The notes under the pieces were generated by a model. That model did not search any database. It was not told the DNA's origin and saw only the letters and a list, made by a program, of their open reading frames with translations. The position numbers were made by a program, and so were the translations under genes. Of a DNA stretch of 64,000 bases, positions 52,899-63,533 are shown one piece after another; position 1 is the stretch's first letter; each line of letters begins with the position of its first letter. The stretch lies in contig NZ_JAPFQO010000001.1 in the NCBI RefSeq assembly GCF_026241195.1, positions 1 through 64,000 of the forward strand. Direction: 5' to 3'. This DNA is from Pontibacter anaerobius. GTDB taxonomy: Bacteria > Bacteroidota > Bacteroidia > Cytophagales > Hymenobacteraceae.

Positions 52899-53618
52899 TT
52901 ACCCCTCGTTATTATTATTGTTGTTGTTCCCGTTCTTGCCGGAGCTTTTCTTTTTTTTCTTGTCGCCCCTGTGCTTTACTACCTTGGCCTCACGGTAGAA
53001 GATGATCTCCTCGGCAATGTTAGTCACCTGGTCGCCAACACGCTCCAGCTTCTTGATGATGGAAAGTATGGCCAGCGCCTCCGAAATCCTTTCCGGGTGT
53101 TGCGCCATATACTTTGTTGCCACGGCATCAGACTTACGATAGATCTTGTTTAAAACCTTGTCGCGCTTGATCAGGGCTTTGGCCATAACGGGGTCATTGT
53201 TCTTGAAAGCCAGCCGGCAATCATCTAGCATTGCCAGGGCCTCCTCATACATAGGTAGCACCTTTGTCATCTCCAGCAGTTGCGGCTCTACGGGTGCCTC
53301 CAGCTTCTTCACGAAGCGGGCTATACCTTCGGCAGTATCACCGATGCGCTCCAGGTTGGTGTTGATCTTAAGCACGGCCAGCACCAGGCGCAGGTCTACG
53401 GCCACTGGCGTAAACAGGGCAAAGAAATTCTCGCACATGCGGTCTATCTTCACGTCGAACTGGTTTACCTTGCGGTCGCGCTTAATAATCTGCTTGGCCA
53501 GTTCCACGTCTGCCTTTAGCATGGCCTCACGGCCGCTCTGCAGCTGATACTCTACCAGGTCCCACATCTCCAGGAGTTTGGTCTTTAAGCGCTCAAGTTC
53601 AATATCTATATGCGGCAT
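52899..53618 (-). CDS. phoU: phosphate signalling protein PhoU
   Basis: Cytoplasmic metal-binding helical bundle, 239 aa, that couples the PstSCAB transporter to the PhoR/PhoB two-component system and represses the Pho regulon under phosphate sufficiency. Two PhoU three-helix units are visible (about 1-110 and 115-210), with the E/D-rich metal sites DLRLVLAVLKINTNLERIGD and LSIIKKLERVGDQVTNIAEE. The C-terminus is unusual: after VKHRGDKKKKKSSGKNG it has eight Asn residues ending in EG, encoded by a run of AAC/AAT codons. PhoR and PhoB are not in the window. Confidence 0.92.
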   Translation of the reverse strand: MPHIDIELERLKTKLLEMWDLVEYQLQSGREAMLKADVELAKQIIKRDRKVNQFDVKIDRMCENFFALFTPVAVDLRLVLAVLKINTNLERIGDTAEGIARFVKKLEAPVEPQLLEMTKVLPMYEEALAMLDDCRLAFKNNDPVMAKALIKRDKVLNKIYRKSDAVATKYMAQHPERISEALAILSIIKKLERVGDQVTNIAEEIIFYREAKVVKHRGDKKKKKSSGKNGNNNNNNNEG

Positions 53619-56250: not shown

Positions 56251-57240
56251 TTACTTTTGAGCACCTGTGGCAAATTGCTCAAACTTCTGCTTCTGCTCCT
56301 TGTACATTTCGTCGGGCAGCGGGATATAGCCAACTTCCTGGCTTAACTCTCCGGCATTATCAAGGTAGAAGTTCACGAAATCTACAGCGGCCTCGTTAGC
56401 AGCAGCTTTAGAGCTTACGTAGATGAACAACGGACGGGAAAGCGGGGCATAGGAACCATCCTTCACAGTCTCCAGCGAAGGGGCGATAGCGCCTGCGCCA
56501 TTTGAGTCGTCCATGTCGTTTACCGGCACAACCTTCAGCTTGCCCTGGTTCTCCTCATAGTAAGCAAAACCGAAGAAGCCTAACGCGTTTACGTCGGTAG
56601 ACACACCCTGTACCAGCACGTTGTCATCCTCGCTGGCGGTATAATCGCCGCGGCTGGCACCACTCTCACCTACCACAGCCTCTGTAAAGTAATCATAAGT
56701 GCCAGACTCTACGCCCGGGCCATACAGGTGCATCTCCTGGTCAGGCCACTCCGGACGTATCTGGTTCCATTTCTTGATCGTGCCTTGTGCAGCCGGCTCC
56801 CAGATCTTCTTCAGTTCATCAGTGGTAATGTCCTTTACCCAGTTGTTTTCCGGGTGTACCACCACCGTAAGGCCGTCATATGCTACTGGCAGCTCTATGT
56901 AAGAAATATTATTGGCTTTAGCCAGGCTGTCTTCCGATGGCTTTATCTGACGTGAAGCGTCTACGATATCAATATCACCGCGTGTGAACTTCTTGAAACC
57001 TCCGCCTGTGCCAGACACACCCACTGTTACTTTAACATCCGGGGCCTCCGCACGGTACTCTTCCGCTACAGCCTCAGTAATAGGATAGACAGTGGACGAA
57101 CCATCTATCTGGATGCTGCCGGTTACTTCTCCGTTGGCTTCTTCACCATTGTTGCCGCCGCCGCAGGCACTGAACAGAACTGTTGCGCCTAAAAGTACCG
57201 CTGCGTTTAATTTTACGCTTGTAAGCTTAAAGTTTAGCAT
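56251..57240 (-). CDS. pstS: phosphate-binding lipoprotein PstS
   Basis: High-affinity phosphate-binding protein of 329 aa. Lipoprotein signal with the lipobox FSACGGG (C26). The PBP fold begins with [22 protein letters not shown]; the phosphate-binding Ser/Thr/Arg patches are [25 protein letters not shown] and [14 protein letters not shown] with GASRGDYT. First gene of pstS-C-A-B-phoU; the only hairpin before pstC is noted above. It delivers phosphate to PstCA. The upstream spacer (57241-57443) has no obvious Pho half-site array, so the main Pho control may lie further upstream at the porin or elsewhere. Confidence 0.95.
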
Positions 57241-57340
57241 AAGCCAGAGTTGGATTAGGTTATAGATTATTTTAAAATCAGGTTTACTCTCCCTAAAAAC
57301 TTGTGTTGATATACTCTAATGTGCACCAACTAGTTGTATG

Positions 57341-57398
57341 AAGGGGGCTGTCTCGCGCTGTCTGCTTAAATTGGACTGCAAAGCGAGGCAGGCCCCTT
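57341..57398 (-). terminator. hairpin between the porin and pstS genes
   Basis: The arms 57341-57356 and 57383-57398 pair over 16 positions with one mismatch and one G-U; the loop is 26 nt. The minus-strand sequence following it is not T-rich. It may be a partial terminator after the porin gene. Confidence 0.5.
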
Positions 57399-57443
57399 CC
57401 TTAAGAAGTATGGGATATGAAGTATTCGTAAAGGACTGGCGGC

Positions 57444-58628
57444 TTACAGGGCTACCTCCATTTGGAGCCTGAACAGGTAGGTGTTCTCCCGGCCGGGCTG
57501 ATCCTGAAGCGTTACATCGCTCTGTACCTTTAAACTATGGCCCACGATATACTTAGATACTCCCAGCGTGTACTGCTCCTGAGCGCTTAGCCTGGTTGCC
57601 TTCTCAGGGTTATAAGTTGTGTAACGGCCTGCTATTTCCCAATTGCTCGGGAAAAGGTAACCCGCCTGTAAGTTAAAGGCATTGCCTGTCACAAATGTCT
57701 CTTCTACTGCACCTTCGTCAGTACGAAGTACTACAGGGCCGTCCTTAGCCGTGCTGTTGGCATATTCCGCCATAGAGGAGAAACCTCTGTACTTGAACAT
57801 GGCATCCAGAAACACAGTATGCAGATCACGGTGACCGCTCAGGAAGTCGCCCAGCTGACCTCTGGCACGTGAGGCCTCATCATTAAAGTCATAAGCGGCT
57901 GCAATGGCTAACTTAGGTGTTTCTTCGCGTGCCAGGTCGCTGCCTACGTAAGCGCCATCTCCTGCAAACTCACCAAAAGGCATCACCTCCACCTTTGCAG
58001 TATAGTCGTAGCCACCGGCGTTGTTCACGGTAATGTCGCGGCCTTCACCCATCGATACAGAGGCGATTTCACGAACCACAGCCGTACCAAACGTATGTGT
58101 GTGGTGTAACTGCAAGCCGGCATCGCGGTCTATGTTAAAGCGGGAGTTCAGCAGGCTTCGGTCTACAAACTGCATTTTCTGAGAAGAAACGATACGCTCA
58201 CGGTTGCCAGGCAGCTTTGTCTGGCCTACCCACAGTTCCCAGCCCGGAGAGAAGTTCCACTTCGCTACCGCATCCAGAATGATGTTATCGGCATTGTTTG
58301 CCATGGCTGGGTTATCGTTGCCGATGTCGCTGTTGCTCAGGCCGAGCTCTATTTTATACTCCAGTTTAGGCGAGTAAGCAAAACCTTCGAACTTAAGACG
58401 GGCTCTGCGGATCAGGAAACGGTCATCCAGCTGATTAGTGCTGTTGTTGATGGCGCCCTGGTACAGCATCTGGAAACGAGTGCCGAACTTCAGGCTAAAG
58501 GAAGAGTCTGCGGCAACAAACTGCAGGCCCTTGCCAAATTTAGAATTGTTGATAGTCTGTGCCTCTGCTGTGTTTAGCGCAAGACATCCCAGAGCTACAA
58601 AAAATACGCTTTTCAGCTTCTTGTACAC
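57444..58628 (-). CDS. phosphate-selective porin OprO/OprP-like protein
   Basis: Outer-membrane porin of 394 aa: signal peptide MYKKLKSVFFVALGCLALNTAEAQ, then GLQFVAADSSFSLKFGTRFQ as the first strand and a 16-strand barrel ending in Phe-rich YLFRLQMEVAL. The N-terminal RARLKFEGFAYSPKLEYKIEL and the DAVAKWNFSPGWELWVGQTKLP segment match the Porin_O_P family of Pseudomonas, which passes phosphate or polyphosphate. Initiation appears to be at GTG (58628). It is the gene immediately upstream of pstS and has a candidate Pho box array in its promoter (58802-58840). Phosphate specificity is inferred from context. Confidence 0.88.
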   Translation of the reverse strand: MYKKLKSVFFVALGCLALNTAEAQTINNSKFGKGLQFVAADSSFSLKFGTRFQMLYQGAINNSTNQLDDRFLIRRARLKFEGFAYSPKLEYKIELGLSNSDIGNDNPAMANNADNIILDAVAKWNFSPGWELWVGQTKLPGNRERIVSSQKMQFVDRSLLNSRFNIDRDAGLQLHHTHTFGTAVVREIASVSMGEGRDITVNNAGGYDYTAKVEVMPFGEFAGDGAYVGSDLAREETPKLAIAAAYDFNDEASRARGQLGDFLSGHRDLHTVFLDAMFKYRGFSSMAEYANSTAKDGPVVLRTDEGAVEETFVTGNAFNLQAGYLFPSNWEIAGRYTTYNPEKATRLSAQEQYTLGVSKYIVGHSLKVQSDVTLQDQPGRENTYLFRLQMEVAL

Positions 58629-58783
58629 GGTACTTTCAGTTTTAGTGAGAAATCAAACTTTTATATGCTTCCATTGCTTTGTGATGCCGGTAACTAGTCA
58701 GGTTACCCGTGTTGCGTCACTTGCTTTATGCCTTAGCGCTACCTTAGTCAGGGGTAGCAGCAGTGGCTTCTGAAATCATGCTG

Positions 58784-58840
58784 CAAAATAAGTGCTTTAT
58801 TATTACTGCTGCTTTACCGCAATGTTAAGTAAATGTTAAG
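58784..58840 (-). promoter_or_regulatory. candidate Pho box and -7 element for the porin gene
   Basis: Four half-sites at exact 11-bp steps on the minus strand: CTTAAC (58840-58835), CTTAAC (58829-58824), GGTAAA (58818-58813), AGTAAT (58807-58802). A 10-nt gap follows, then TTATTTTG (58791-58784), one base off TAnnTTTG. No TTG -33 element is present, as expected for an activated promoter. This mirrors the geometry on the other side (58960-59080). Confidence 0.65.
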
Positions 58841-58959
58841 ACTTGCATGGAAGTATAAAACCGAGGGTGCTGTCGTAAATGGCTAACTATCAATGGTACG
58901 CTCTGTTTTTGGCTCAAAGTATAACAAGTATACTATCTATAAGCTATACTTAATGTTAC

Positions 58960-59080
58960 GGTAACGCACAGGTAAAACTGCGGTAAAACTAACGTAACCA
59001 CCGCTTAACAAATAGCCTCCATGCTTAACCATAGCATAACCCCTGCTTAAACATAAGGTAAAACGCCTGCTCTACTTTTG
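58960..59080 (+). promoter_or_regulatory. candidate Pho box array with -7 element
   Basis: Hexamers begin at 58960 GGTAAC, 58971 GGTAAA, 58982 GGTAAA, 58993 CGTAAC, 59004 CTTAAC (all 11 bp apart), then after a 20-bp step 59024 CTTAAC, 59035 CATAAC, 59046 CTTAAA, 59057 GGTAAA (again 11 bp apart). A 10-nt gap leads to TACTTTTG at 59073-59080, a perfect TAnnTTTG box. There is no TTG -33. 11-bp direct repeats of CTTAAC type are the known layout for PhoB-family regulators (for example cyanobacterial SphR boxes). The target is the lipoprotein gene at 59197. Confidence 0.75.
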
Positions 59081-59085
59081 TGACA

Positions 59086-59196
59086 GATATCAGGGAGGAA
59101 AGAGAGCTTTCCCGCTCCGGTCTCAGAGACCTATAGTATAAAGCCTCCGCCCGGACCTGATCCTGAAGTGTCACCAATCAATTAAAGTAGAACTTT
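59086..59196 (+). other. 5' leader of the lipoprotein gene
   Basis: If transcription begins near 59086, the leader is about 110 nt. It contains two small hairpins, GGAAAG-AGAG-CTTTCC (59097-59112) and GGTCTC-A-GAGACC (59119-59131), and one AGTATAAAG oligomer. Confidence 0.45.
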
Positions 59197-60588
59197 ATGA
59201 AAATCACTGGTAAATTTTTGCTTGCACTGCTGCTAACAGGTTCAGTGTGCACCTTTACATCATGCGACGATGACAACGATGGCGCGCCTGCTATAGAGGA
59301 GCCGCAAGGAGAGGAGATTGTGGTAACAGAGGGCCCAAACGGCACCGGTACCACCACCTGGACGGCCAACAACACTTATATATTAGATGGCTTCGTGTTC
59401 GTTAACTCCGGCCAGACCTTAACCATTGAGCCAGGCACAATTATTAAAGGCAAGCCGGGCGAGGGTGAGAATGCCAGTGCCCTTATTGTAGCGCGCGGCG
59501 GTAAGATCATAGCCCAGGGCACTGCCGACAAGCCGATCATCTTCACTGCACTGCAGGACGATGTGACCAAGGTAGATGATATGCCGCTGGATGCCACAGG
59601 ACAGTGGGGTGGTGTGATCATACTTGGTAGCGCTACTATTAATAAGACGGGCGGCGAGGGTGCCATCGAGGGTATACCTGCCGAGGAGCCGAGAGGAATC
59701 TACGGCGGCACCAACGATACCGATAACTCGGGCGTGTTTAAGTATGTTTCTATCCGCCATGCCGGTACGCTGATAGGGGGTGGCAACGAGATAAACGGCC
59801 TGACCATGGGCGGTGTCGGTTCCGGTACTACTATAGAGTATGTGGAAGTATACGGCAACCAGGACGACGGCTTTGAGTGGTTCGGGGGCACCGTGAACAC
59901 CAAATACCTGGTATCGGCCTTTAACGGCGACGACCAGTTTGACTATGATCAGGGCTGGAGAGGCAACAACCAGTTCTGGTTCGGCATCTACCGCGAGGGC
60001 GAAGGCGGTACAGGCGGCGAGTTTGATGGCGGTTCTAAGCCGGATGATGCTGTGCCATTCTCTATCCCAACTATCTCCAACGCTACCATACTTGGCGGCA
60101 AGTCGCTGGACGGGCAAAATGCCGTGATGCTGGTTGACAACGCCGGCGGTAAGATCTACAATAGCATCTTCGGTGAGTTTAGAGGCGGCATTGTGGTAGA
60201 GGATCTGGATGACGCCAACGTAGGCGACAGCCGCCAAAGACTGGAAGCCGGCGACCTGCTGTTCCGCAACAACATCTTCATGAGCATGGCGGACAACACC
60301 TTTGAGGGCATCACGGCTGTATCGGCCAACCAAGGCTACCTGCTTGACCACCTGAAGGCGACAGACAACAAGAACCTTGTAACTGCTGACCCGGTACTGG
60401 CGGGCATCAGCCGCCAGAACAACAAGGGCCTTAACCCGCTTGCCTCCTCCGGCAGCGCCGCCCTTTCTGGTGCCACCATGCCTGAAGGCAGCTTCTTTAA
60501 GAATGTGAACTACGTGGGTGCCTTTGATGGCACTACCAACTGGATGAAAGGCTGGACTTACATCGACCAGCTAGGTTATCTGCAATAG
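59197..60588 (+). CDS. β-helix-type outer-membrane/surface lipoprotein, predicted Pho-regulated
   Basis: A 463-aa lipoprotein (signal MKITGKFLLALLLTGSVCTF, lipobox TSC with C23, then acidic DDDNDG: a Bacteroidota surface-export type start). From about residue 50 it has β-helix-like turns: VNSGQTLTIEPGTIIKG, ASALIVARGGKIIAQGTAD and the PIIFTALQDDVT pattern; the middle contains EYVEVYGNQDDGFEWFGGT and DNAGGKIYNSIFGEFRGG. Such right-handed β-helix proteins are often found next to TonB-dependent receptors. It is 89 nt upstream of a large TonB receptor gene and separated from it by a terminator. The Pho box array in front suggests induction by phosphate limitation. No enzymatic motif was seen. Confidence 0.8.
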   Translation: MKITGKFLLALLLTGSVCTFTSCDDDNDGAPAIEEPQGEEIVVTEGPNGTGTTTWTANNTYILDGFVFVNSGQTLTIEPGTIIKGKPGEGENASALIVARGGKIIAQGTADKPIIFTALQDDVTKVDDMPLDATGQWGGVIILGSATINKTGGEGAIEGIPAEEPRGIYGGTNDTDNSGVFKYVSIRHAGTLIGGGNEINGLTMGGVGSGTTIEYVEVYGNQDDGFEWFGGTVNTKYLVSAFNGDDQFDYDQGWRGNNQFWFGIYREGEGGTGGEFDGGSKPDDAVPFSIPTISNATILGGKSLDGQNAVMLVDNAGGKIYNSIFGEFRGGIVVEDLDDANVGDSRQRLEAGDLLFRNNIFMSMADNTFEGITAVSANQGYLLDHLKATDNKNLVTADPVLAGISRQNNKGLNPLASSGSAALSGATMPEGSFFKNVNYVGAFDGTTNWMKGWTYIDQLGYLQ

Positions 60589-60677: not shown

Positions 60678-63533
60678 ATGTTTTCTAAAATTACAGGCTT
60701 AGTAAGCTTGTTGTGCTTGAGTGCAACCATTGCATTTGCACAGAGTGGCATCATCAGAGGGCAGCTCACAAGTAGCGAAACCGGCGAAGAGCTGATAGGG
60801 GCTACCGTGGTAATAAAAAGTATATCCAACGGTGCAGCCACTGACCTGGATGGTAAATTTAACCTGAACAACATTGCGCCTGGCACTTACGAGGTGCAGG
60901 CATCCTACATCTCCTACGAGCCTAAAACGGTAACTGGGGTTGTAGTAAAGGCTAATGAAGTAACCGTGCTGAACATCCAATTAGGGTCAGCCACTACCAA
61001 ACTACAGGAAGTAGTGATAGAAGGCAGGGCCATCAAAAGCTCTGAAAACACACTGCGCAACACGCAGAAAAAAGCTGCCGTGGTGATGGATGGCGTTTCG
61101 GCGGAGCAGTTCTCCCGCAGCGGCGACAGCGACGCAGCGGCAGCCCTTACCCGCGTTACGGGCATCTCGCTGGAGGGCAGCAAGTATGTGTATGTGCGTG
61201 GCCTCGGCGACCGCTATGTGAAAACATCCCTCAACGGTGCCGAGATACCGGGCCTAGACCCGAACCGCAACACGGTGCAGATGGACCTTTTCCCCTCGAA
61301 CCTGCTCGATAACCTGACGGTGTCCAAAACTTTCACTCCCGATATGCCGGGCAGCTTCTCCGGCGGTTTTGTGAACATCACCACCAAAGATTTCCCCGAC
61401 AGGTTCACGCTGCAGCTCTCCACCTCCGTTGGCTACAACGATCAGGCTACCTTCAATAACAAATTCCTGAGCTCTAACAAGGGTAAAACTGATTGGCTAG
61501 GCTACGATGACGGAACCCGCGCCGTGCCGGATGCGATTAATTACACCATCCCTTACGAGAGCTTTACCAACAAGCAGCAGGCTGAGCAGATAGACCAGGC
61601 CACGAAAGCATTCAATACCGATATGGGCCCCACCCGCATCACAGCGCCTATCAACCGCTCGCACGCCTTCTCGCTGGGCAACCAGACCGAGCTTTTCGGC
61701 AGGCAACTTGGCTACGTGGTGGGCTTATCGTACCAGCGCAACTTCTCCTACTACAACAATGGCACTTTTGGCCTGTGGGAACTGAACAGCGCCGGGGCCA
61801 GCAGGCTGAACAACAATAGCTTGTATGAAGATGAAAAAGGTGTGGAAGAAGTATCGCTGGGCTTTCTGTCGAATTTTGCCTACAAGTTTAACAGCAACAA
61901 CAAGTTATCGCTTAACCTGATGCGCAACCAGAGCGGCAGCAACTCCAGCCGTTTCCTGTTCGGTACCTTTCCGGCCATCTCAGGCGTGAACGACGGGCGC
62001 GCGATATTCGAGTCGAGGGCGCTGCACTATACACAGCGTGCCCTGAACAGCGCACAGCTGAAGGGCGAGCACGTGGTGCCGGGGCTGAATAACAGTAAGA
62101 TCGACTGGCTGACCTCGTTCACGCTGTCGCAGCAGGATGAGCCGGACCTGCGCTTCTTTGCCAACGATTATTACCTGAACGGCTCCGACACCACTTACCG
62201 CATCCAGCTTGCAGCCTACACTTTGCCGGCACGCTTCTTCCGCGATCTGGATGAGATCAACCTGGATGTGAAAGTAAATGTGGAGACGCCGTTCGAGATC
62301 TGGAACGGACTGGAGGCAAAGACAAAGTTCGGTGCCGCCGCCCTGCTGAAAGACAGGAAATTCAGGGAGAACATTTACCGCTACCGCTTTAATGAAGGCT
62401 ACGGCTACAACGGCAGCATCACGGATTTCTTCTCGCCGGAGAAACTGGGCATAGTGGCCACGCCGCAGGACCCGGAGAGCGGCGGTATCTACCGCTATGG
62501 TGTGTACCTGCAGGACGGCACCCAGCGCACCAACAATTATGATGGAGAGGAGGCGGTGTATGCGGGCTATGGTATGATTGACCTGCCGCTGACCGAAAAG
62601 CTGCGTGTGGTGACAGGTGCCCGTGTGGAGGTAACTGACATCTTTGTGCAGAGCTTCAACAAATCGCTGGAGCCCGGCGACCTGAACCAGGTAGATGTGC
62701 TGCCGTCGGTTAACGCTACCTATAGCCTTACCGATAATATGAACCTGCGGGCGGGCTATTCCAGAACACTGGCAAGGCCAAACTTCCGTGAGATCGCGCC
62801 TTATACCTCGTTCGACTTTGTGGGTGAGCCGGCCTTTACCGGTAACGCTAACCTGGAGCGCACCACCATCGATAACTTCGACACAAGATGGGAGTGGTAC
62901 CCGAACCTGGGCGAGTACATCAGCGTGAGCGCCTTCTACAAAAACTTCCAGAACCCGATCGAGCGCACCATCAACACACTGGCGCAGAACAACGAGATCT
63001 TTATCCAGAACGTGGACAACGCCAAAGTATACGGGCTGGAGTTTGAGCTGAACAAGCGCCTGTCATTCGTCGCGCCTTTTCTGGAGAACTTTATACTTGG
63101 GTCTAACCTGTCGCTGATAAAATCAGAGGTAAGTATAAAAGCGCTGGAGCTGGAGCAGATCAGAGCCGTGCGCCCCAATGCGGATGATACCAGACCCTTG
63201 TTCGGACAGTCGCCGTTTGTAGCCAATGCCAGCCTGACATACCAGAGCGAGCCGCTGGGGCTGATGGCCACGGCCAACTACAACGTGTTCGGCGACAGGA
63301 TCTCGGCTATCTCGGTAGGGGGCACACCAAACATCTACGAGCGCTCGCGGCCAATGGCAAGCATAGTTGTGTCTAAACGTTTGGGCGATGCCTTCACGGC
63401 GAAGCTATCAGCGGATAACCTTTTTAACCCTGAGTTTGTGAACAGCCATGAGTATAACGGGCAGGAGTATATCTACTCTTCTTACAAGCAAGGGCGAACC
63501 TTCTCCGCCGGCATCACATTCCTGATCGACTAA
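60678..63533 (+). CDS. TonB-dependent receptor, predicted Pho-regulated
   Basis: Large outer-membrane transporter, 951 aa: signal peptide MFSKITGLVSLLCLSATIAFA, carboxypeptidase-regulatory-like domain (about 25-95, IRGQLTSSETGEELIGATVV), plug (about 115-245, EVVIEGRAIKSSENTLRNTQ; KKAAVVMDGVSAEQFSRSGD; GLGDRYVKTSLNGAEIPGLD), and a 22-strand barrel ending in the aromatic strand FSAGITFLID. The plug is of the type in which ALTRVTGISLEGSKYVYVRG is strongly conserved. There is no SusD partner; the preceding β-helix lipoprotein is the likely partner. The position beside the pst-phoU-porin genes and a Pho box suggests uptake of a phosphorus compound or of a phosphate-linked substrate. The substrate is unknown. 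Confidence 0.85.
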   Translation: MFSKITGLVSLLCLSATIAFAQSGIIRGQLTSSETGEELIGATVVIKSISNGAATDLDGKFNLNNIAPGTYEVQASYISYEPKTVTGVVVKANEVTVLNIQLGSATTKLQEVVIEGRAIKSSENTLRNTQKKAAVVMDGVSAEQFSRSGDSDAAAALTRVTGISLEGSKYVYVRGLGDRYVKTSLNGAEIPGLDPNRNTVQMDLFPSNLLDNLTVSKTFTPDMPGSFSGGFVNITTKDFPDRFTLQLSTSVGYNDQATFNNKFLSSNKGKTDWLGYDDGTRAVPDAINYTIPYESFTNKQQAEQIDQATKAFNTDMGPTRITAPINRSHAFSLGNQTELFGRQLGYVVGLSYQRNFSYYNNGTFGLWELNSAGASRLNNNSLYEDEKGVEEVSLGFLSNFAYKFNSNNKLSLNLMRNQSGSNSSRFLFGTFPAISGVNDGRAIFESRALHYTQRALNSAQLKGEHVVPGLNNSKIDWLTSFTLSQQDEPDLRFFANDYYLNGSDTTYRIQLAAYTLPARFFRDLDEINLDVKVNVETPFEIWNGLEAKTKFGAAALLKDRKFRENIYRYRFNEGYGYNGSITDFFSPEKLGIVATPQDPESGGIYRYGVYLQDGTQRTNNYDGEEAVYAGYGMIDLPLTEKLRVVTGARVEVTDIFVQSFNKSLEPGDLNQVDVLPSVNATYSLTDNMNLRAGYSRTLARPNFREIAPYTSFDFVGEPAFTGNANLERTTIDNFDTRWEWYPNLGEYISVSAFYKNFQNPIERTINTLAQNNEIFIQNVDNAKVYGLEFELNKRLSFVAPFLENFILGSNLSLIKSEVSIKALELEQIRAVRPNADDTRPLFGQSPFVANASLTYQSEPLGLMATANYNVFGDRISAISVGGTPNIYERSRPMASIVVSKRLGDAFTAKLSADNLFNPEFVNSHEYNGQEYIYSSYKQGRTFSAGITFLID

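What the first reader, a model, noticed from the sequence alone, without database searches (positions are those of the whole stretch)
58960..59080. Nine-half-site, 11-bp-periodic Pho box-like array driving a lipoprotein/TonB receptor pair
Hexamers of CTTAAC/GGTAAA type start at 58960, 58971, 58982, 58993 and 59004, then 59024, 59035, 59046 and 59057. All steps are 11 bp except one of 20. The last ends exactly 10 nt before a perfect TAnnTTTG box (59073-59080), with no TTG -33. This is what is known for PhoB-family activated promoters (direct repeats on one face of the helix, overlapping the -33). The sequence pattern is direct; its assignment to Pho control is inference supported by the adjacent pst-phoU and porin genes. 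Pho boxes of Bacteroidota are poorly described, so this site may define a consensus.
Basis: partly seen in the sequence, partly recalled or inferred. Interest (0 to 1): 0.8.

Follow-up and report, generated by a model that had tools for sequence, protein, structure and literature searches.

The report
Phosphate-starvation control array in Bacteroidota
A row of evenly spaced short DNA repeats, very probably landing sites for the phosphate-starvation regulator, sits in front of nutrient-uptake genes in this bacterium, and the same layout recurs in front of phosphate genes in its relatives, which gives a concrete and testable description of a kind of control site that is poorly described in this phylum.

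Summary
The array is real and has a twin on the opposite strand. Upstream of the lipoprotein/TonB genes lie ten (not nine) NNTAA(C/A/T) half-sites in 11-bp steps with one 20-bp step, ending 10 nt before TACTTTTG. An unreported second array (four half-sites, 10 nt, TTATTTTG) faces the porin gene that leads pstSCAB-phoU. A genome-wide scan for the composite (three half-sites, 11-bp steps, 10 nt, TAnnTTTG, at most one mismatch) found 108 sites in 44 same-genus genomes against 7 for the reversed pattern; 10-bp steps or a 13-nt spacer left 10 and 7 sites in 45 genomes. Of 95 sites read, 56 precede phosphorus-type genes or pst-linked receptors: porins, PlcP-like phosphoesterase, PhoX, nuclease, GDPD, this lipoprotein. 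Across the class, sites also precede pstS and a phoB homologue. An unselected fourth half-site occurs in 53 of 70 sites; the 20-bp step recurs in four gene families. Best reading: a Bacteroidota Pho box, with PhoB-type activation replacing the -33 element. Binding and phosphate response were not tested. The genus's own phoB promoters lack the composite. A related regulator's motif (Riemerella PhoP, TTTAACA) is already in print.

The parts
59024..59062 (+). Proximal block: four half-sites CTTAAC (59024), CATAAC (59035), CTTAAA (59046), GGTAAA (59057), 11-bp steps
   Evidence: fourth half-site at this register in 53 of 70 relatives' sites
58949..59009 (+). Distal block: six half-sites CTTAAT (58949), GGTAAC (58960), GGTAAA (58971), GGTAAA (58982), CGTAAC (58993), CTTAAC (59004), 11-bp steps; joined to the proximal block by a 20-bp step (59004 to 59024)
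   Evidence: 20-bp step in 25 of 70 relatives' sites, at least half the members of 4 gene families
59063..59072 (+). Ten-nt spacer between the last half-site and the -7 box
   Evidence: a 13-nt spacer gives 7 sites in 45 genus genomes, ten nt gives 108 in 44
59073..59080 (+). -7 box TACTTTTG (TAnnTTTG), no TTG at -33
   Evidence: the -33/-7 promoter consensus of Bacteroidota is recalled, from no call
58802..58840 (-). Second array, opposite strand: CTTAAC (58835-58840), CTTAAC (58824-58829), GGTAAA (58813-58818), AGTAAT (58802-58807)
   Evidence: model score 46.1, second best of 173,338 places scored
58784..58791 (-). -7-like box TTATTTTG of the porin-pst promoter, ten nt after the last half-site
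59197..60588 (+). Lipoprotein (463 aa) by its N-terminus, predicted beta-strand-rich, probably beta-helix; no Pfam or NCBIfam family at E 0.001
60678..63533 (+). TonB-dependent receptor (951 aa)
57444..58628 (-). Porin_O_P family porin, first gene of the porin-pst-phoU run
56251..57240 (-). pstS
   Evidence: over the curated cut-off of TIGR02136
53679..56205 (-). pstC, pstA, pstB reading frames (named from gene order; no family scan was run on these three)
52899..53618 (-). phoU

Best explanation
It is a Pho operator of Bacteroidota. Under phosphate starvation a PhoB-type response regulator (probably the one encoded at G000:C1:252800-253510, next to a histidine kinase) is thought to bind head-to-tail on the 11-bp repeats: two dimers on the four half-sites of the proximal block, which take the place of a -33 element and bring RNA polymerase to the -7 box exactly ten nt downstream. 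Further protomers on the distal block, set 20 bp away, would strengthen binding. Two such operators, back to back, would switch on the lipoprotein/TonB genes on one side and porin-pstSCAB-phoU on the other. Shown: the sequence architecture, its spacing-dependent enrichment in relatives, the downstream genes, and the synteny. Inferred: which protein binds, that it activates, that phosphate is the signal, and that the porin promoter reads through pst.
For: Array beyond chance and, in the window, confined to this intergenic region. Only exact match of the composite in the 4.65-Mb genome. Genus scan: 108 sites against 7 reversed-pattern sites in 44 genomes; 10-bp steps give 10 sites and a 13-nt spacer gives 7, in 45 genomes each, sets that overlap but are not identical. 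Downstream genes of the 95 sites read: 56 phosphorus-type genes or pst-linked receptors. Fourth half-site, not part of the search, in 53 of 70, against 0-4 at each of six off-register positions. Class scan: 24 sites against 4 in 247 genomes, including sites before pstS (no mismatch) and before a PhoB-type regulator 53% identical to the window genome's. Orthologous promoters keep the layout in six of six Pontibacter and Rufibacter loci. Porin and pstS follow each other on one strand in 22 of 22 loci where pstS was seen. In 20 of 37 related loci the lipoprotein lies within the fetched stretch beside pst, phoU or phoB matches, other phyla included. E. coli Pho box lies 10 bp from the -10 and the cyanobacterial half-site is CTTAACCT (PMC1906773, passages); Riemerella PhoP motif TTTAACA (PMC9603813, passages).
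Against: No binding or expression data. The phoB promoter of this genome and of 29 further genus loci has at most a two-half-site element (best model score 2.4), so autoregulation by the full composite is not seen there. In this genome few other targets were found; PhoX was not found and the PlcP-like protein had only a 24%-identical match; the glpD array scores -6.1, like chance. 24 of 95 genus sites read precede genes with no visible phosphorus link or no gene, and MarC (7), a 494-aa protein (4) and SusC-type receptors (4) are recurrent but of unproven link. The 20 TonB receptors in the 56 count by linkage, and two of them were not divergent from a porin. The 'PlcP-like' protein has Pfam Metallophos_2 but its best, sub-cut-off NCBIfam match is an LpxH-type diphosphatase. 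Five of 23 class sites precede unrelated or no genes. The 20-bp step is not prominent outside the genus: 2 of 23 class sites. 17 of 37 related loci, the three Rufibacter ones included, show no pst, phoU or phoB match in the fetched stretch, some of which are short. Three of six flavobacterial promoters have only one half-site in register. In F. johnsoniae the OprP gene of the phoBR cluster was not induced at low phosphate (PMC8115612 table).
Confidence: 0.9

Rival explanations
1. The array is bound by another OmpR/PhoB-family regulator that answers to envelope or oxygen stress rather than phosphate; such regulators also use direct repeats.
For: The Riemerella motif was judged by its authors to resemble that of ArcA (PMC9603813 passages). 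MarC and several SusC-type receptors, with no obvious phosphorus role, carry the composite. The genome has a second full-length regulator of this family at C9:94419.
Against: 56 of 95 genus sites precede phosphorus-type genes or pst-linked receptors, and the class scan reaches pstS and a phoB homologue. Only two regulators match TIGR02154 over its length here, and the better one is next to a histidine kinase and closest to PhoB.
Confidence: 0.06
2. The repeats work mainly as a repressor site or as a site of mixed sign rather than as an activator.
For: Dense arrays can repress (general knowledge); no expression data are at hand.
Against: The fixed ten-nt distance to the -7 box and the lack of a TTG at -33 match activated Pho promoters, and lipoprotein and receptor genes of a similar cluster in F. 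johnsoniae are induced at low phosphate (PMC8115612).
Confidence: 0.03
3. The repeats are a satellite-like heptamer family, such as the TAACTGA repeats reported from some Bacteroidetes, without a promoter role.
For: Direct repeats of a TAAC-containing unit in intergenic DNA (PMC4679880, passages).
Against: The unit is 11 bp with a degenerate spacer, not a tandem TAACTGA heptamer; the place relative to the -7 box is fixed, and the genes downstream share a theme.
Confidence: 0.01

Closest known systems
Pho box of E. coli (PhoB)
   Same: 11-nt direct-repeat units, placed 10 bp upstream of the -10 element, before phosphate-uptake genes (PMC4415409 and PMC1906773, passages).
   Different: Half-site CTTAAC/NNTAAM instead of CTGTCAT; four half-sites in register rather than a two-unit box; -7 box TAnnTTTG; additional block after a 20-bp step.
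SphR Pho box of cyanobacteria
   Same: Consensus CTTAACCT with 3-bp linker, that is an 11-bp period, three or more repeats (PMC1906773, passages).
   Different: The last two letters CT are not conserved here; four repeats rather than three; fixed spacing to a TAnnTTTG box.
PhoP core binding region of Bacillus subtilis (recalled)
   Same: Four TTAACA-like repeats in 11-bp steps just upstream of the promoter, two dimers.
   Different: Other phylum and sigma factor. This comparison is from memory and rests on no call.
Riemerella anatipestifer PhoP DAP-seq motif
   Same: Bacteroidota; most conserved letters TTTAACA; peak upstream of the phoPR operon (PMC9603813, passages).
   Different: The passages read describe neither arrays nor a fixed distance to the promoter; the main text holds 'direct repeat', '11 bp' and 'Pho box' 0 times. 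Its figures were not seen.
Phosphate-depletion regulon of Flavobacterium johnsoniae
   Same: Lipoprotein of beta-helix type (IPR011050) next to a TonB receptor, PhoBR and OprP; pf12850 PlcP, PhoX, MauG-like and SusC-like genes (PMC8115612, passages and part of Table 1).
   Different: No promoter analysis in the main text ('promoter' and 'Pho box' occur 0 times).
Putative Pho boxes near plcP in marine heterotrophs
   Same: Bioinformatic Pho-box sites near plcP gene clusters; a flavobacterium is among the strains studied (PMC4796936, passages).

Membership tests
Pho box (PhoB-family operator) | Direct repeats with 11-nt units | tested here: met
   10-bp steps give 10 sites in 45 genomes against 108 in 44 for 11-bp steps
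Pho box (PhoB-family operator) | Fixed place about 10 bp upstream of the -10/-7 element | tested here: met
   13-nt spacer gives 7 sites in 45 genomes
Pho box (PhoB-family operator) | Stands before phosphate-acquisition genes in several genomes | tested here: met
   56 of 95 genus sites read, 20 of these being TonB receptors counted by linkage; 15 of 23 class sites by sequence match, 3 more by eye
Pho box (PhoB-family operator) | Bound by phosphorylated PhoB-type regulator | not testable with these tools
   Needs a footprint; only a PhoB-like gene was located
Pho box (PhoB-family operator) | Gene induced by phosphate limitation | not testable with these tools
   Induction of genes of a similar cluster is reported for F. 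johnsoniae (PMC8115612)
E. coli Pho box | Half-site CTGTCAT | tested here: not met
   Commonest half-sites are CTTAAC (46), CATAAC (42), CTTAAA (26) of 280
Cyanobacterial SphR Pho box | 8-bp repeat CTTAACCT | tested here: inconclusive
   The CTTAAC part is met, the closing CT is not conserved
phoB autoregulation by this operator | Full composite upstream of phoB | tested here: not met
   30 genus loci, best score 2.4; but one class genome has it 17 nt before a PhoB-type gene (L235)
TAACTGA repeat family | Tandem TAACTGA heptamers | tested here: not met
   Period is 11 bp with degenerate spacer; family known from passages of PMC4679880

The most novel reading that the evidence does not exclude
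Bacteroidota use a Pho operator of defined two-block design: four half-sites that occupy the -33 region at a fixed ten nt from TAnnTTTG, plus an optional distal block joined by a 20-bp instead of a 22-bp step. The two missing base pairs equal the drift of four 11-bp steps against a 10.5-bp helix, so two four-site blocks (centres 53 bp apart, 5.05 turns) would lie on one face and let two PhoB tetramers co-operate. The promoter would need no -33 element at all.
Probability: 0.5. Interest if true: 0.65.

Novelty: new variant of a known kind. Interest (0 to 1): 0.58.

Why it matters
It gives an explicit consensus, roughly CTTAAC-N5-CATAAC-N5-NTTAAM-N5-GGTAAM-N10-TAnnTTTG, with which Pho regulons can be predicted in a phylum where I found phosphate genes described mostly from expression data. 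It also offers a clean test of how a PhoB-type activator works with the -33/-7 promoters of Bacteroidota, and it points to unassigned candidate members (a MarC-family protein, a 494-aa protein, SusC-type receptors).

Tried and rejected
Own-genome array before glpD (C4:23.0 kb): it looked good as a triple of TTAAC but scores -6.1 with the model, like chance; dropped. An array inside a coding sequence (L002) and one at the start of a coding sequence (L022) were taken as chance without a test; of the other own-genome hits I looked at the neighbours of only some. phoB autoregulation: tested on 30 loci of the genus and not supported for the full composite. The 20-bp step as a class-wide rule: not supported (2 of 23 class sites). 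PlcP-like, PhoX and a second porin in the own genome as further tests: a 24%-identical match, none, and one Porin_O_P in all. TAACTGA repeats considered and rejected. Foldseek gave only weak matches to beta-helix proteins (best E 7e-3, none at or below 0.001), so the fold of the lipoprotein rests on the model's strands (mean pLDDT 74.7) rather than on a firm match; a sequence search of solved structures gave nothing. Kinship of the window lipoprotein with the F. johnsoniae FI/FII forms or with Caulobacter ElpS was not tested by sequence; of the ElpS paper I saw abstract and outline (PMC2996285).

Full report
What is there. The sequence at 58949-59080 holds ten half-sites of the form NNTAA(C/A/T), eleven bp apart, with one 20-bp step between 59004 and 59024. 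The last ends ten nt before TACTTTTG. With the core TAA[AC] alone, none of 5000 dinucleotide shuffles reached the observed five-unit chain or the seven 11-bp steps. In the whole window, on both strands, the only chains of three or more are the two blocks of this array and one on the minus strand at 58838. That third chain is a separate operator: CTTAAC, CTTAAC, GGTAAA, AGTAAT, ten nt, TTATTTTG, pointing at the porin gene. The porin is followed on the same strand by pstS, pstC, pstA, pstB and phoU (the same order in L039, L040 and L044), and a simple scan of 57100-59300 found no terminator-like site. One intergenic region thus carries two back-to-back copies of the same design.

Orthologous promoters. 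Six named relatives with the same gene (Pontibacter ummariensis, P. diazotrophicus, P. silvestris, three Rufibacter) keep the layout. In the window and the three Pontibacter all four proximal half-sites are TAA[AC]; in the Rufibacter ones three, three and two are, the others being TAAT. Of 1000 shuffles each, 0, 0, 0, 0, 0, 2 and 0 did as well (order: window, L039 to L044). All seven have ten nt before TAnnTTTG. P. ummariensis shows blocks of six and four half-sites 20 bp apart. Of seven flavobacterial loci I could place the start codon in six: three had two half-sites in register (1, 1 and 3 of 1000 shuffles as good) and three had one (52, 31 and 73 of 1000), so the evidence there is mixed.

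Genome-wide test. The composite TAAM-N7-TAAM-N7-TAAM-N10-TANNTTTG with no mismatch occurs once in the 4.65-Mb genome, at this site. With at most one mismatch, 80 of 120 genomes of the family have a match. In the 44 genomes of the genus among them (the own one included) there are 108 sites against 7 for the pattern read backwards. Two spacing controls in 45 genomes of the genus (a draw that overlaps the first) gave 10 sites (10-bp steps) and 7 sites (13-nt spacer). So both the 11-bp step and the ten-nt distance matter.

What the sites stand before. Of the 105 non-own genus sites, 95 were listed and read, in 38 genomes; ten in four genomes were not listed. The gene taken was the longest frame starting 5 to 450 nt downstream. 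Clusters: TonB receptor 20 (18 of them divergent from a porin gene), the window's porin family 8, a second Porin_O_P family 8, a Metallophos_2 (PlcP-like) phosphoesterase 8, this lipoprotein family 4, PhoX 3, Exo_endo_phos nuclease 3, NPP-like 1, GDPD 1; together 56. Family names come from one representative per cluster; the NPP-like gene rests on sub-cut-off matches of its 84%-identical homologue in this genome to alkaline-phosphatase-type families. Recurrent but without a proven phosphorus link: MarC 7, a 494-aa protein 4, SusC-type receptors 4. The remaining 24 are a purL-like gene (2, named by eye), 19 singletons and 3 without a gene. pstS follows a porin on the same strand in all 22 loci where it was seen.

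Internal structure. I aligned 70 sites (the groups above, one SusC site left out by oversight). A fourth half-site, which the search did not ask for, is in register in 53 of 70; six off-register positions gave 0, 0, 0, 1, 0 and 4. A fifth at 22 bp is almost absent (2 of 70). Instead TAA[AC] stands at 31 bp, that is after a 20-bp step, in 25 of 70, followed at 11-bp steps by 22, 14 and 12. The 20-bp step is present in at least half the members of four unrelated gene groups: TonB receptor 16 of 20, lipoprotein 4 of 4, PhoX 3 of 3, GDPD 1 of 1. It is not seen in the porin_w, PlcP-like, MarC and SusC groups. Commonest half-sites differ by place: CTTAAC farthest from the promoter, CATAAC next, and (G/T)TAA(C/A) nearest. 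Orthologues inflate these counts, and the search pattern came from the window's own site, so only the unselected positions, the spacing controls and the gene identities are independent evidence.

Own genome. A model built from the 70 sites of relatives ranks the two window operators first and second among 173,338 places scored (52.8 and 46.1), MarC third (38.7) and the NPP-like gene fourth (17.3). The next are 13.2 and 4.9, and the backwards control peaks at -4.4. The scored stretches were the window and five chosen pieces, not the whole genome. The PlcP-like protein has only a 24%-identical match and PhoX was not found, so this genome offers few further targets. The best PhoB candidate is at C1:252800-253510, beside a histidine kinase; its score for TIGR02154 (222.9) is below the curated cut-off of 296.2, as in 10 of the 12 control genomes in which that family rang. 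Its promoter has only a two-half-site element that recurs, by eye, in part of the genus, not the composite.

Wider range. In 247 genomes of the class the four-half-site version with at most one mismatch gave 24 sites in 24 genomes against 4 for the backwards pattern; so most genomes of the class have no site at this stringency. Of the 23 outside the window, 15 precede genes matched by sequence: lipoprotein 4, TonB receptor 5, PstS 1 (no mismatch), PhoB-type regulator 1, Porin_O_P 1, MauG 1, purple acid phosphatase 1, GDPD 1. Three more look by eye like a PhoX-type protein and two porins. Five do not fit. The 20-bp step is not conspicuous there (2 of 23). In 20 of 37 related loci, among them ones labelled Latescibacterota, Gemmatimonadetes and Verrucomicrobia, the lipoprotein gene has pst, phoU or phoB matches in the fetched stretch; 17, among them the three Rufibacter, do not, some being short contigs.

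Mechanism. From the general biology of PhoB-family regulators (head-to-tail binding on 11-nt repeats, PMC4415409 passages; 10 bp to the -10 in E. coli, PMC1906773 passages), the simplest model is activation by PhoB bound to four half-sites that replace the -33 element. The 20-bp step removes the 2 bp by which four 11-bp steps outrun a 10.5-bp helix (arithmetic), which would keep the two blocks on one face; this last point is inference.

What is known. Searches for 'Pho box' with Bacteroidetes, phosphate and TonB, with Flavobacterium, and with Bacteroidota returned 0, 3 and 1 papers. Three of these four I saw only as listings, with titles on other phyla. The fourth (PMC4796936, passages) mentions putative Pho-box sites near plcP clusters of marine bacteria, but the passages give no consensus. 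The library holds open-licence papers only, so this is no proof of absence. The Riemerella PhoP DAP-seq paper (passages) reports TTTAACA as the most conserved letters, which agrees with the half-site here and is the nearest prior description I found. The F. johnsoniae study (passages and part of its table) shows strong low-phosphate induction of a lipoprotein/TonB pair next to phoBR, of pf12850 PlcP, PhoX and MauG-like genes, types also found downstream of the composite here; its OprP gene was not induced.

Noticed in passing
G000:C1:659917-659973 (L082, L232), upstream of a MarC-family gene: A four-half-site composite precedes a MarC-family membrane protein, and the same holds at 7 genus sites; I know of no phosphate role for MarC, so it may be an unrecognised member of the regulon.
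   Followed up: partly
L235:1501-1555: In one class-level genome the composite stands 17 nt before a PhoB-type response regulator, whereas 30 phoB loci of the window's genus lack it.
   Followed up: partly
L261-L290, about 110-180 nt upstream of phoB: A two-half-site element of the type GTTAAC-N5-ATTATG recurs, by eye, upstream of phoB in part of the genus, without a -7 box at ten nt; purpose unknown.
   Followed up: no
L194, L196, L170 and 15 similar loci: In these species the gene divergent from the porin is a different TonB receptor (about 30% identical to the window's) instead of the lipoprotein/TonB pair; 16 of 20 such receptor sites keep the 20-bp step: gene exchange under a kept promoter.
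   Followed up: partly
L078 (own genome), L201, L207: Near-matches of the composite before a gene that looks like purL by eye, in three genomes; could be chance kept by orthology or a link between phosphate and purine synthesis.
   Followed up: no
G000:C9:96489-96545 (L233): An 11-bp array of TTTAAT-type half-sites with TAGGTTTG in register scores 13.2, fifth best place; downstream gene not examined.
   Followed up: no
L045-L048, L050, L051, L053-L057, L059, L063, L064, L072, L074: The lipoprotein family (mostly with a TonB receptor) lies near pst, phoU or phoB matches in several lineages outside the window's family, non-Bacteroidota included, which suggests an old, widespread phosphate-acquisition unit of unknown substrate.
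   Followed up: partly
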